Source of the DNA: Opitutales bacterium
GTDB lineage: Bacteria; Verrucomicrobiota; Verrucomicrobiia; Opitutales; UBA953
Assembly: GCA_017935025.1 (NCBI GenBank)
Contig: JAGBIL010000007.1
Span: 1 to 47,672 of the forward strand
Reading direction: 5' to 3'
DNA: 47,672 nt
The position numbers were made by a program, and so were the translations under genes. This document shows, one piece after another, positions 1 to 47,672 of the stretch (its first letter is position 1; every line of letters begins with the position of its first letter). The notes under the pieces were generated by a model, which searched no databases, was not told the DNA's origin, and saw nothing but the letters and a program-made list of their open reading frames with translations.

Positions 1-268
1 AGTCTGCGTGACCCGGGCAGTCAACGTGAGCGTAGTGGCGCTTGTCGGATTCATATTCGACGTGCGCAGCAGCAATCGTGACCGTCTTGGTCGCGTCACG
101 AACCGTACCGCCCTTAGCGATATCCGCGTAAGCCTTGACAACTGCGAGGTTTTTGCAAGCCTGAACAGCGAGGATAGCGGCAGTCGTGGTCGTTTTGCCG
201 TGGTCGATGTGACCGATGGTGCCGACATTGACGTGCGGTTTCGTACGAACGAAGGTTTCTTTAGCCAT
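1..268 (-). CDS. tuf: Elongation factor Tu, N-terminal part (cut by window edge)
   Basis: GTPase that carries aminoacyl-tRNA to the ribosome. Only the first 89 codons are in the window. The N-terminus reads MAKETFVRTKPHVNVGTIGHIDHGK, with the P-loop GHIDHGKT, and the switch II motif DCPGH follows near residue 85. The switch I region is unusual: where most bacteria have a segment ending in RGITI, this protein has AKGGTVRDATKTVTIA before HVEYES. I recall similar forms from Verrucomicrobiota and Planctomycetes relatives, so it is probably lineage-specific and not damage. The start is the ATG at 268. tRNA-Thr lies 43 bases upstream on the same strand, the classic tRNA-tuf arrangement, and is probably cotranscribed. 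Identity is certain; whether other tuf copies exist cannot be seen. Confidence 0.96.
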   Translation of the reverse strand, partial: MAKETFVRTKPHVNVGTIGHIDHGKTTTTAAILAVQACKNLAVVKAYADIAKGGTVRDATKTVTIAAAHVEYESDKRHYAHVDCPGHAD

Positions 269-311
269 AGTTTATATTGTTTTTGTTGTTATTGTTGATT
301 GAAAGTGGAAC

Positions 312-387
312 TGGAGCCCCCGAGCAGACTTGAACTGCCGACCTCGTCCTTACCAAGGACGCGCTCTACCGACTGAGCTACAAGGGC
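312..387 (-). tRNA. tRNA-Thr (anticodon GGT)
   Basis: Read on the minus strand the cloverleaf is complete. The acceptor arm GCCCTTG pairs with CGGGGGC through two G-T wobbles. The D arm contains AGCTCAGTCGGTAGAGC. The anticodon stem CGTCC/GGACG holds the loop TTGGTAA, giving anticodon GGT for threonine. The T arm contains GTTCAAGTC. The 3' CCA is encoded. Its place directly before tuf matches the common bacterial tRNA-Thr/tuf order. Confidence 0.96.
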
Positions 388-431
388 GTCAAGGGACCTC
401 TATCTCGTGAAAACGAAATAAAAGGAACGGA

Positions 432-460
432 CATTTTGCCTTGTAAAAAATTTTCGTCAA
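432..460 (-). promoter_or_regulatory. Possible promoter for tRNA-Thr and tuf
   Basis: On the minus strand a TTGACG -35 box is followed after 17 bases by AAAATG as a weak -10 box, ending about 45 bases before the tRNA. The -35 match and spacing are good, the -10 is poor, so this is tentative. Confidence 0.35.
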
Positions 461-512
461 TACATTTTTCTAAAAATTTTGCAAAAAATGTTTGATTTTT
501 TGTGAAAAACTC

Positions 513-1403
513 TTACGGGGCGGCAACTTTCCCCTTCTCCCGTTCCCGTCGCCGCCTCAAAACTTTTTCCCGCTCTTTGAGCAACGTGTAATCCAGAATA
601 TAAGAATCCGCGCAAAACGACGGATCGACATCAATCTCTCCCAATAAATAAAGATTCGTTCCTTTCGAGAAAAAATATTCATCGGCAAGCTCGAACGCTT
701 CTCTCAAAGAATCAGACACCTCTATAAACCGCTCCGCAATCTCTGCCCTTTCCGCTTTATTTACGGGAGGACGGAGCTCAAGCACCTCCCCGCGCAGGCG
801 CATCACCTCCCGGAAATACGGTAAAATGAAATCGACGTCTCGCCCTCTCTCGGATTTTAACGCTGCCGAAAACTTCTCTCCGGCATCCGCAAAACGGCGG
901 ATAGCTGCAAATTGTCCGTCTTTCGACAACGGCACATCTTTCGGTTGAAACCGTTCATCCCAATCCTCCTCCGATAAAACGGTCGGTAGCTCAAGCCCGT
1001 TATAACAAATCCACTGGAGTGCACCCATTCGCCCCTCTCGCGAAAGCATTCCTGAAATGTATTCTTTCCGTCGTTTTGAAAAATTTGAGGAAAGTATAAG
1101 CTCCCGCAACCGCCACACCCGCTTATCTCTGTAATTCAACGCAAGAAATCTTCCGAATGGTCCGGAAGAGACTTCAGGGAAAAGGATTGCCTCCTGTTCG
1201 TGCGTGAGCGGCGTTCCCGTGTCCAAGCGCCGGATTACCTCGTCAATTTTCGCAACGGATTCCGCCGCACTGCACGAAACGCGCACGCTCCCGCGAACTT
1301 CGTCCGCGCACGCCGCGACCCCGGCCGCTCCCGCGGATGCGAATCCCAAGAAGGTAGCCGGCGCCAACAACAGTGTAACAACGCACTTAAACGAATGCCT
1401 CAT
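513..1403 (-). CDS. Secreted protein of unknown function (paralogue A)
   Basis: I do not recognise a family. The 296-residue product begins with a typical signal peptide: a basic start, a hydrophobic run to about residue 25, then small residues ending near ASAGAAG. The mature part is charged and probably helical, ending in an Arg/Lys-rich tail (RRRREREKGKV). It shares a pattern with the product of the next gene upstream (1400-2188): a stretch of about 20 residues with L..G..L..EQE, a later LELP, and an aromatic/charged end. The two are therefore likely tandem paralogues. Its ATG overlaps the stop of that gene as ATGA, so the two are translationally coupled. It is the last gene of a four-gene minus-strand operon. 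Confidence 0.8.
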   Translation of the reverse strand: MRHSFKCVVTLLLAPATFLGFASAGAAGVAACADEVRGSVRVSCSAAESVAKIDEVIRRLDTGTPLTHEQEAILFPEVSSGPFGRFLALNYRDKRVWRLRELILSSNFSKRRKEYISGMLSREGRMGALQWICYNGLELPTVLSEEDWDERFQPKDVPLSKDGQFAAIRRFADAGEKFSAALKSERGRDVDFILPYFREVMRLRGEVLELRPPVNKAERAEIAERFIEVSDSLREAFELADEYFFSKGTNLYLLGEIDVDPSFCADSYILDYTLLKEREKVLRRRREREKGKVAAP

Positions 1404-45976: not shown

Positions 45977-45977
45977 A

Positions 45978-47333
45978 CTATTTTCCTATACAGAAAGATG
46001 AAAAAACTTTGTCCAAAACTTTCTCATTATCGAATTGTCCGAGAATCTCCGACAACTCTTCCATAGCACTTCTCAATTTGGAGGAAATAAATTCAATCGG
46101 AATATTCCCTATTAAATTCGAAGCATCTATAAGCGAATTTTCCGCTGCCATAATCGCTTCGGCATGACGTGCAGAAACGACGAGAACTTCAGAATCGGGA
46201 ACAATGTTTTTCTTACTGAAAATATCTTCCAAATACCGTTTTACGGTTTCAGAAGCCCGTGAATCCAATAAGGAAACGGATAAGCGATCTATCCCGGGCA
46301 AAAAAGCATCTTTATCAAAAGCCGGATTTAAATCGGTTTTGTTAAAAAGAATACAGGAATTTTCCCGATTTATACTTTCTAATATTTCCCCGGAAAGGGC
46401 AGGGGCAGGCGAAGAAGAATCCACTACGAAAATTAAAAAATCCGCTCCTTTCATACAATCGTAGGTTTTAAGAATTCCGGATTCTTCAACTTTGGATTCA
46501 GTGTATTCACGAATACCTGCAGTATCTATTATTCTGATACAATTTTCACCTATTAAAATATTCTCACTGATAAAGTCCCTTGTCGTTCCCGCCTCATCGC
46601 TTACCAAGGCGCGCTCGGTACCGACAAGTGCATTCATCAGAGAAGACTTTCCGGCATTCGGAGCACCGAAAATAACAACATTAATTCCTTCGTATACTCT
46701 CGAAGAATACCGAGCAGTCTCACGCGTTTTTCTAAGCTTTAAAATCAGCGATTCAAGTCTCCCTTTAAAATAACCGGAATCGATTTCTGGGACTTCTTCT
46801 TCGGAAAAATCAATTTGAGTTTCCGTTTCCGCAATGAGCTTCAAAATTTCATCATTCCATTCAAAAATTCTTTTCCCGAGCTCTCCGGAAAGTAATTTTC
46901 TGGCAGCTTCAAAAGCTCGCTCCGACCGTGCCGAGATAATTTCAGCAACAGCCTCCGCCTGAGTTAGATCCATCCTCCCGTTAATAAAAGCCCGTCTTGT
47001 AAATTCTCCGGGCAGGGCAGGGCGGCAACCGCGCTTAAATAAATCTTCAATAATGCGATTTACGATAAAAGGATTCCCGTGACACGAGATCTCCAGTAAA
47101 TCCTCTCCTGTATACGATTTCGGACCGGAAAACGACACCCAAAGGCACTCATCCAAAACTTTTCCGGAAATAGCTCTATAAGCACCAAAATAGGCTTTTC
47201 TGGGTTCAATTTCACGCTTTCCGAAAGCCTCCTTCGCAATCGGCAGCGCAGATTTTCCGCTCACACGAATAACGGCAAGAGCGGAAGATCCTGAAGGCGT
47301 GGCAAGTGCAGCAATGGTCGGTAAATCAGCCAT
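45978..47333 (-). CDS. mnmE: tRNA modification GTPase MnmE
   Basis: GTPase partner of MnmG in U34 modification. 451 residues from the ATG at 47333. The N-terminal folate-binding domain has TIAALATPSGSSALAVIRVSG and SYTGEDLLEISCHG. The G domain shows GAPNAGKSSLMNAL (G1), TTRD (G2), DTAGIRE (G3) and NKTD (G4). The conserved C-terminal FCIGK, with the catalytic Cys, is present. An upstream in-frame ATG would add 20 residues without family support. mnmG follows one base later. Confidence 0.97.
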   Translation of the reverse strand: MADLPTIAALATPSGSSALAVIRVSGKSALPIAKEAFGKREIEPRKAYFGAYRAISGKVLDECLWVSFSGPKSYTGEDLLEISCHGNPFIVNRIIEDLFKRGCRPALPGEFTRRAFINGRMDLTQAEAVAEIISARSERAFEAARKLLSGELGKRIFEWNDEILKLIAETETQIDFSEEEVPEIDSGYFKGRLESLILKLRKTRETARYSSRVYEGINVVIFGAPNAGKSSLMNALVGTERALVSDEAGTTRDFISENILIGENCIRIIDTAGIREYTESKVEESGILKTYDCMKGADFLIFVVDSSSPAPALSGEILESINRENSCILFNKTDLNPAFDKDAFLPGIDRLSVSLLDSRASETVKRYLEDIFSKKNIVPDSEVLVVSARHAEAIMAAENSLIDASNLIGNIPIEFISSKLRSAMEELSEILGQFDNEKVLDKVFSSFCIGK

Positions 47334-47388
47334 ATTTCTAAACGTCCGATTAAACCAACTCGTTCCCGCGTTCGCAAGTACCGAGCAA

Positions 47389-47426
47389 AACAAAAAGCCT
47401 TTCCTTGAAACGAAAAGGCTTTTTGT
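47389..47426 (-). terminator. Terminator of dnaN
   Basis: AACAAAAAGCCTTT pairs with AAAGGCTTTTTGTT around a short loop. It lies 25 bases past the dnaN stop and separates it from mnmE; it is symmetrical and could act both ways. Confidence 0.85.
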
Positions 47427-47450
47427 TCAGAGATAAAACGAAAAAACAAA

Positions 47451-47672
47451 CTATTTTCGCTGCGGCATAATTACACACAGGAAACCCTCATCCTTCGTTT
47501 TAAGAACTCCGGGGCTCAATTCGTCCTTAAATTCAAAAACGACGATATCCTGAGCCAGAGCTTTTAACGGATCCGACAAAAACTGCGGATTAAAAGCAAT
47601 TTTCATATCAGTACCTTCGTACTGAACGGCGATTTTATTGCTCGCTTCGTTTTCGCCGCCGTTTGCCGCAAC
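47451..47672 (-). CDS. dnaN: DNA polymerase III beta clamp, C-terminal end (cut by window edge)
   Basis: Sliding clamp of the replicase. The last 73 residues and the stop are in the window. The sequence KIAFNPQFLSDPLKALAQDIVVFEF, with KDELSPGVLK and the end GFLCVIMPQRK, is the conserved domain III of DnaN, including the C-terminal MPxR segment near the peptide-binding pocket. Its position next to mnmE supports an origin-proximal location. A terminator follows. Confidence 0.95.
   Translation of the reverse strand, partial: VAANGGENEASNKIAVQYEGTDMKIAFNPQFLSDPLKALAQDIVVFEFKDELSPGVLKTKDEGFLCVIMPQRK

What the first reader, a model, noticed from the sequence alone, without database searches (positions are those of the whole stretch)
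1..47672. About 120 copies of the dispersed motif GTTCCCG: a candidate DNA-uptake or genome-signature sequence
The 7-base core GTTCCCG/CGGGAAC occurs about 120 times by eye count; chance predicts about 6 in a window of this size and composition. The flanks extend to CGTTCCCG(C/T). It is in genes of unrelated function, in several reading frames and on both strands (about 73 against 49), so neither codon bias nor a protein motif explains it. Close variants such as CGTTCCCA are rare. The behaviour matches DNA-uptake sequences in Neisseriaceae and Pasteurellaceae, or HIP1 in cyanobacteria. I know of no such signal described for Verrucomicrobiota, and if real it may point to sequence-selective natural transformation in this lineage.
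Basis: partly seen in the sequence, partly recalled or inferred. Interest (0 to 1): 0.93.

Follow-up and report, generated by a model that had tools for sequence, protein, structure and literature searches.

The report
A third self-DNA uptake password
About 5,400 copies of one short DNA word, CGTTCCCG, stud the genome of this likely gut-dwelling bacterium, and the word is likely a password that marks the cell's own DNA for uptake, which would make it the third such system known and the first in its phylum.

Summary
GTTCCCG occurs 128 times in the window (10 expected); CGTTCCCG occurs 5,434 times in the 2.03-Mb genome, evenly on both strands. The excess survives synonymous-codon shuffling (1,058 against 194). 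It is confined to one Opitutales genus, likely Candidatus Spyradosoma: six of eight genomes have 5,192-6,550 copies, two have 1,362 and 546; 383 sampled phylum genomes outside the genus have over 20-fold fewer per base.

It behaves like Neisseria DUS and Haemophilus USS: very sharp consensus and sites more conserved than flanks, intergenic inverted pairs resembling terminators (74 against 9 in the opposite orientation), and ComEC, DprA and pilus genes present. The two low-copy genomes carry an excess of one-step variants that reads as decay. There is no replication polarity. A genus-restricted minor pilin is an untested receptor candidate.

Against: genes lacking an ortholog are not motif-poor overall, and motif density does not follow pilus or ComEC phylogeny.

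Likely mechanism: biased uptake and recombination of marked self-DNA. Uptake is not shown. Open-access searches found no earlier report.

The parts
1..47672 (.). 128 dispersed copies of GTTCCCG/CGGGAAC (99 of them CGTTCCCG), the candidate DNA-uptake sequence
   Evidence: one search lists every copy; searches give the extended consensus and strand counts
36261..36283 (.). Inverted pair GTTCCCG..CGGGAAC flanked by A-run and T-run just past the aconitase stop codon: intrinsic-terminator-like hairpin
   Evidence: folds at -27 kcal/mol, z -6.9
14370..14383 (.). Abutting inverted pair GTTCCCGCGGGAAC between the convergent genes for a family-25 glycosyltransferase and LepA
   Evidence: folds with z -3.0
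19911..19924 (.). Abutting inverted pair GTTCCCGCGGGAAC followed by a T-run, near the start of the tyrosyl-tRNA synthetase gene (upstream of the start chosen by my script at 19957, inside the longest frame from 19852)
20938..20951 (.). Abutting inverted pair inside the tyrosyl-tRNA synthetase coding sequence
28182..30566 (-). AAA_13 gene of the type I restriction-modification island, G+C 34%, no copy of the motif
34812..36071 (-). AAA_14/DUF4143 gene, G+C 41%, no copy of the motif
9808..11789 (-). Tsp45I-like type II restriction-modification pair; 3 copies of the core in the methylase gene, none in the nuclease gene

Best explanation
The word CGTTCCCG, 5,434 copies in this genome, is likely a DNA-uptake sequence: DNA that carries it would be preferred for uptake by the cell's type IV pilus and ComEC machinery. 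Shown: the word is extremely over-represented on both strands, confined to one genus among the genomes searched, conserved in place between species, used in all reading frames, and found in terminator-like hairpins; and the genome has ComEC, DprA and pilus genes. Inferred: fragments carrying the word are taken up more often and recombined into the chromosome, so near-matches are converted to the consensus over time and lost copies are restored. Also inferred: the receptor is a minor pilin on the pilus; a 139-residue pilin found full-length only in this genus is the best candidate. Where the bias stops acting, as the two low-copy genomes suggest, the word would decay by point mutation.
Against: No uptake or transformation experiment was found for this genus. 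Genes without an ortholog on the matching G005 contig are not motif-poor overall (2.88 against 3.06 per kb), unlike DUS, reported absent from recently acquired genes; only the low-G+C genes of the window are poor. T4P and ComEC sequences do not sort copy-rich from copy-poor genomes: copy-rich G004 groups with copy-poor G001 and G006. PF12836 gave no over-cut-off match that looks like ComEA; its one strong match per genome lies in a frame of about 800 residues that I take for Tex (recalled), with weak matches below the cut-off in five genomes. No secretin was found in copy-rich G002 (200 contigs, 92% complete). ComEC and DprA are common across the order (35 of 38 genomes each), so they do not explain the genus restriction. 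A second minor pilin is also lineage-restricted, and the small pilin is present in the copy-poor genomes too, so the receptor is not identified. In G006 only 1 of 33 aligned sites is intact, below the 14% control, which neutral decay alone does not predict.
Confidence: 0.76

Rival explanations
1. A HIP1-like genome signature: the word is kept by a methylase- or repair-linked process, or as a nucleoid or chromosome-organisation site inside the cell, with no role in uptake.
For: Density (one CGTTCCCG per 374 bp) and spread through genes of unrelated function are like HIP1 (recalled). Copy number does not follow T4P or ComEC phylogeny. Not depleted in genes without an ortholog in G005.
Against: The word is not palindromic, whereas HIP1 is (recalled). 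The directional inverted pairs (74 against 9), the sharp consensus with position-specific near-matches and the apparent decay in one lineage are DUS/USS traits.
Confidence: 0.13
2. A Chi- or KOPS-like recombination or segregation signal, read in one orientation by RecBCD/AddAB or FtsK.
For: Over-represented oligomer present throughout the chromosome.
Against: Chi and KOPS are polarised with respect to replication (recalled). Here whole-genome strands are 2,708/2,726, and 535 copies lie on the G-rich against 616 on the C-rich strand over 35 10-kb windows. GC skew is only a proxy for replication direction.
Confidence: 0.03
3. A transcription-terminator stem that spread: the word is primarily half of an intrinsic terminator and the single copies are relics or by-products.
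For: 74 intergenic convergent pairs, most with A/T-runs; the highest intergenic density is between convergent genes (8.7 per kb).
Against: 1,064 of 1,263 copies in the sampled genome lie in genes, in all frames, and inside genes convergent pairs are not favoured as they are between genes (35 convergent, 26 opposite, 85 same-strand). DUS and USS show the same co-option.
Confidence: 0.04
4. Codon usage, a repeated protein motif or an assembly artefact.
For: Two giant ORFs on L002 carry the word on one strand only in their middle (34 of 34).
Against: Synonymous shuffle, also without genes of 4.5 kb or longer (1,001 against 184); all frames; six copy-rich assemblies.
Confidence: 0.01

Closest known systems
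DNA uptake sequence (DUS) of Neisseriaceae, read by the minor pilin ComP
   Same: Thousands of copies on both strands, sharp consensus, conserved in place, inverted pairs resembling terminators, type IV pilus plus ComEC/DprA genes, lineage-restricted.
   Different: Unrelated word (CGTTCCCG against GCCGTCTGAA; no CTG core). Different phylum. Receptor unknown; the candidate pilin belongs to a family of its own. Not clearly depleted in genes lacking orthologs. Uptake not shown.
Uptake signal sequence (USS) of Pasteurellaceae
   Same: As above; USS density and consensus are reported weak in H. ducreyi (PMC1626085, passages), as the word is in G001 and G006. The complement GCGGGAAC happens to contain GCGG, the USS inner core.
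   Different: Word unrelated outside GCGG, and only copies followed by C contain it. No AT-rich 3' extension in the flank table of the window.
HIP1 of cyanobacteria (recalled)
   Same: Similar density, mostly genic.
   Different: HIP1 is a palindrome; this word is directional and forms inverted-pair hairpins.

Membership tests
DNA-uptake-sequence system (general kind: DUS/USS) | Short word very over-represented genome-wide on both strands | tested here: met
   5,434 CGTTCCCG against 91 reversed; 2,708/2,726; top k-mer
DNA-uptake-sequence system (general kind: DUS/USS) | Unusually strong consensus: perfect copies rival or exceed all singly mismatched copies | tested here: met
   0.66-1.27 in six genomes (median 8-mer 0.07-0.10). 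The strict form, more perfect than mismatched, is met in 2 of 6 (G003 1.08, G004 1.27); an 8-mer was used here, a 9-mer's paper
DNA-uptake-sequence system (general kind: DUS/USS) | Sites more conserved than their flanks between genomes | tested here: met
   0.95 against 0.87-0.88 (G005), 0.94 against 0.80-0.81 (G003), 0.89 against 0.75-0.77 (G007)
DNA-uptake-sequence system (general kind: DUS/USS) | Inverted pairs placed as intrinsic terminators | tested here: met
   Intergenic: 74 convergent, 9 opposite, 11 same-strand; 61 of 74 with A/T-runs; folds. Termination itself not assayed
DNA-uptake-sequence system (general kind: DUS/USS) | Competence machinery: type IV pilus, ComEC, DprA | tested here: met
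   ComEC, DprA 8 of 8; secretin 7 of 8; PilM, pilins, ATPases in the window's genome. No ComEA-like over-cut-off match to PF12836
DNA-uptake-sequence system (general kind: DUS/USS) | Rare in recently acquired genes | tested here: inconclusive
   2.88 per kb in 31 genes without an ortholog on the G005 contig against 3.06 in 57 core genes (7 intermediate genes 2.60); low only in low-G+C genes of the window. Lack of an ortholog on one contig is a crude proxy
DNA-uptake-sequence system (general kind: DUS/USS) | Cells take up or are transformed preferentially by DNA carrying the word | not testable with these tools
DNA-uptake-sequence system (general kind: DUS/USS) | A dedicated receptor that binds the word | tested here: inconclusive
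   Minor pilin full-length in 8 of 8 genus genomes, 0 of 30 outside, also in the copy-poor genomes; binding not tested
Neisseriaceae DUS or Pasteurellaceae USS proper | The family's own word (GCCGTCTGAA dialects with CTG core; AAGTGCGGT/ACAAGCGGT) | tested here: not met
   Word is (g)CGTTCCCG(C/t) with no CTG or CAG (family words)
HIP1 | Palindromic octamer (recalled) | tested here: not met
   CGTTCCCG is not its own reverse complement (sequence)
Chi / KOPS | Strand polarity relative to replication (recalled) | tested here: not met
   535 on G-rich against 616 on C-rich strand, correlation of strand bias with masked skew -0.31; genome-wide 2,708/2,726

The most novel reading that the evidence does not exclude
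A third, independently evolved DNA-uptake-sequence system and the first in Verrucomicrobiota: a genus of gut bacteria marks its chromosome with thousands of CGTTCCCG words and reads them with an orphan, genus-specific minor pilin, and one lineage inside the genus has stopped reading the word and is losing it.
Probability: 0.4. Interest if true: 0.95.

Novelty: new variant of a known kind. Interest (0 to 1): 0.9.

Why it matters
[quoted passage not shown] A third case in a distant phylum would show that self-DNA recognition evolves repeatedly, and would offer a natural comparison of copy-rich and copy-losing species for the open question of why uptake sequences exist. It would also predict natural transformation, and a handle for genetics, in little-studied gut Verrucomicrobiota.

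Tried and rejected
A dialect in the other-genus genome G008 (GTACCCG, ACCCGTG): rejected; all copies in the stretches seen lie on one strand of one 20-kb stretch (L041) in step with one reading frame, i.e. likely one giant repetitive gene.

A second dispersed word in L131 (CAATCGGG): rejected, mostly a tandem repeat.

Strand polarity: the place list looked one-stranded after 20 kb of contig C1. This was an artefact of list truncation; direct counts are balanced overall, with local exceptions on L002 and L017.

That G001 is a close relative with a swapped pilus: rejected. Many G001 proteins are as far from the G000 group as G006's are, while some are 93-99% identical, so it is a mosaic or a mixed bin (corrected).

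The small pilin missing from G001 (noted): rejected, one search found it on contig C85.

Copy number following ComEC or T4P sequence type: not seen.

Depletion in accessory genes: not seen overall.

Copies in viral contigs: 0 matches to one exact inverted-pair pattern in IMG/VR; this does not test single copies.

Literature: (open-licence PMC only). Nothing on an uptake sequence in Verrucomicrobiota was seen in the lists shown. Searches matched 396 and 433 papers, of which only the 10 listed each were seen; the one paper naming Spyradosoma does not mention it in the held part of its text.
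Full report
1. The observation. The window holds 128 copies of GTTCCCG on both strands (74 + / 54 -) where dinucleotide shuffles give 10. The word or a one-base shift of it heads the k-mer lists from k = 6 to k = 10, with a wider consensus (g)CGTTCCCG(C/t)(g/a). The window is contig C26 of a 2.03-Mb genome (98% complete, 46 contigs). 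That genome has 5,434 CGTTCCCG (2,708 + / 2,726 -) against 91 for the reversed word, one per 374 bp. Each of the 19 stretches taken carries it.

2. Not codon or protein bias. I called genes with a simple codon-model script, which is approximate. In 321 coding sequences from about 394 kb, synonymous shuffling within each gene gives 194 copies of GTTCCCG; 1,058 are seen. For CGTTCCCGC it is 536 against 54. All six frame/orientation classes are used (72-327 copies). Of 1,263 copies, 1,064 (84%) fall in called genes; intergenic density is somewhat higher (4.07 against 3.09 per kb). Some single-mismatch forms are enriched (TTTCCCG 2.15, ATTCCCG 2.0, CTTCCCG 1.8, GCTCCCG 1.77, GTTTCCG 1.76 fold) and others depleted (GTACCCG 0.18, GTCCCCG 0.31, GTTCCCC 0.44). 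So some positions tolerate change and others do not.

3. Who has it. The tyrosyl-tRNA synthetase places the organism among Opitutales MAGs, several from animal guts, with Candidatus Spyradosoma merdigallinarum as the nearest named relative (86% identity); that contig carries 32 CGTTCCCG in 7.8 kb. The genus name and gut habitat of the window's own genome are inferred. By equal contig lengths, G005 is the goat-rectum MAG RGIG2967, G007 the sheep-rectum MAG RGIG6493 and G003 SIG76. All 8 held genomes of the genus were counted for CGTTCCCG: G000 5,434, G002 6,161, G003 6,550, G004 5,322, G005 5,274, G007 5,192, but G001 1,362 and G006 546. For CGTTCCCGC, the 30 relatives outside the genus have 4-177 copies, near the reversed control or below it. 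Of 387 phylum genomes, the 4 genus members have 3,353-3,907 copies and the other 383 have 0-286. Some of those 383 do exceed the reversed control several fold (for example G054 138 against 24, G060 226 against 43), so that control is imperfect, but per base all are at least 20-fold below the genus members of that call.

4. Evolution of the sites. Nucleotide alignments of sampled stretches of G000 to the other genus members show sites intact far above pooled control 8-mers: G005 175 of 221 (control 45%), G003 73 of 91 (37%), G007 62 of 93 (32%), G004 11 of 19 (13%), G002 13 of 16 (18%) (G004 and G002 rest on few sites). Sites are 95% identical to G005 while their flanks are 87-88%. In G001 only 16 of 40 are intact (control 28%; the G001 set included locus L062, whose assignment to G001 is unverified), and 16 of the 18 aligned copies on the G001 side are shared with G000. 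In G006 1 of 33 is intact (control 14%). Both low-copy genomes have a residual excess of the word (3.8 and 3.2 fold over an order-3 model). Their excess of single-mismatch forms (1.54 and 1.74) is larger than in the copy-rich genomes (1.16-1.35), led by single transitions of the word. I read this as decay after loss of the drive. The G006 figure below control is not explained by neutral decay alone.

5. Where the loss lies. A DprA+ComEC tree with four outgroups gives ((G006,G001),G004) at 98/97 and 91/91, against (G002,(G000,G005),(G003,G007)) at 100/100; DprA alone leaves G004's place open. With G004 copy-rich, one loss on the G001/G006 stem is simplest. Aconitase and Tex-like trees put G001 inside the G000 group instead: G001 is a mosaic in which some proteins are 93-99% identical to that group and many only 25-80%. 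Whether this is real recombination or a mixed bin cannot be told here, so the number of losses is uncertain.

6. Terminator-like pairs. In four genomes (G000, G003, G005, G007), convergent pairs GTTCCCG-(0-20 nt)-CGGGAAC in intergenic DNA number 74, the opposite orientation 9, same-strand pairs 11. Inside genes the counts are 35, 26 and 85, so the arrangement is intergenic. Of the 74, 61 have an A-run before or a T-run after. Three of four folded examples have z of -5.6 to -8.0; the fourth, at window 14370, has -3.0. Co-option of uptake sequences as terminators is described for both known families. Termination was not assayed.

7. Machinery. ComEC and DprA occur in 8 of 8 genus genomes and in 35 of 38 relatives searched. 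A secretin occurs in 7 of 8, not found in G002. The window's genome has PilM and pilin genes, an operon resembling Amuc_1098/Amuc_1101 (scores below the curated cut-offs), three PilB/PilT-type ATPase genes and seven prepilin-like proteins. No ComEA-like over-cut-off match was found.

9. Rivals. Chi/KOPS: no polarity. HIP1: not a palindrome. Terminator origin: most copies are genic and not in pairs. A chromosomal binding site read by an unknown protein is the main live rival. One expected DUS trait is not seen: genes without an ortholog on the G005 contig carry the word nearly as densely as core genes (2.88 against 3.06 per kb, 31 and 57 of 95 genes).

10. Novelty. PMC12616744 (passages) calls Neisseriaceae and Pasteurellaceae the only families known to do this. 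Nine literature searches in an open-licence library showed no report for Verrucomicrobiota in the lists seen. I file it as a new variant of a known kind: it works like DUS/USS on most sequence tests, but uptake has not been shown.

Noticed in passing
L264 (G001:C36) and L265 (G006:C62): The two copy-poor genomes carry an extra secretin and extra pseudopilin-like genes, likely a type II secretion system, not found in the six copy-rich genomes.
   Followed up: partly
G001 loci L021, L022, L288, L289, L241: G001 is mosaic: SucCD-like, Tex-like, aconitase, release factor and HsdR/M proteins 93-99% identical to the G000 group, but DprA, MurG-like, pilus and ComEC proteins only about 25-63% (SucCD, Tex and MurG named by eye). 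Recombination or a mixed bin.
   Followed up: partly
window 23706-34681: Type I restriction-modification island whose outer genes (HsdR, HsdM) align to G005 and G003 at 90-92% nucleotide identity while the middle (RhuM, AAA_13, HsdS, AlbA_2) does not align.
   Followed up: no
window 9808-11789: Tsp45I-like type II restriction-modification pair between a release-factor gene and tRNA-Pro; absent from the syntenic G005 stretch.
   Followed up: no
L002 2075-16272: Two adjacent giant ORFs (2,577 and 2,229 aa) with the word on one strand only in their middle (34 of 34).
   Followed up: partly
L041 (G008:C2:1-20000): A 20-kb stretch, likely one giant repetitive gene, with GTACCCG/ACCCGTG words in step with one frame.
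   Followed up: partly
L131 13033-13104: Tandem array of the 8-mer CAATCGGG in an Opitutales MAG.
   Followed up: no
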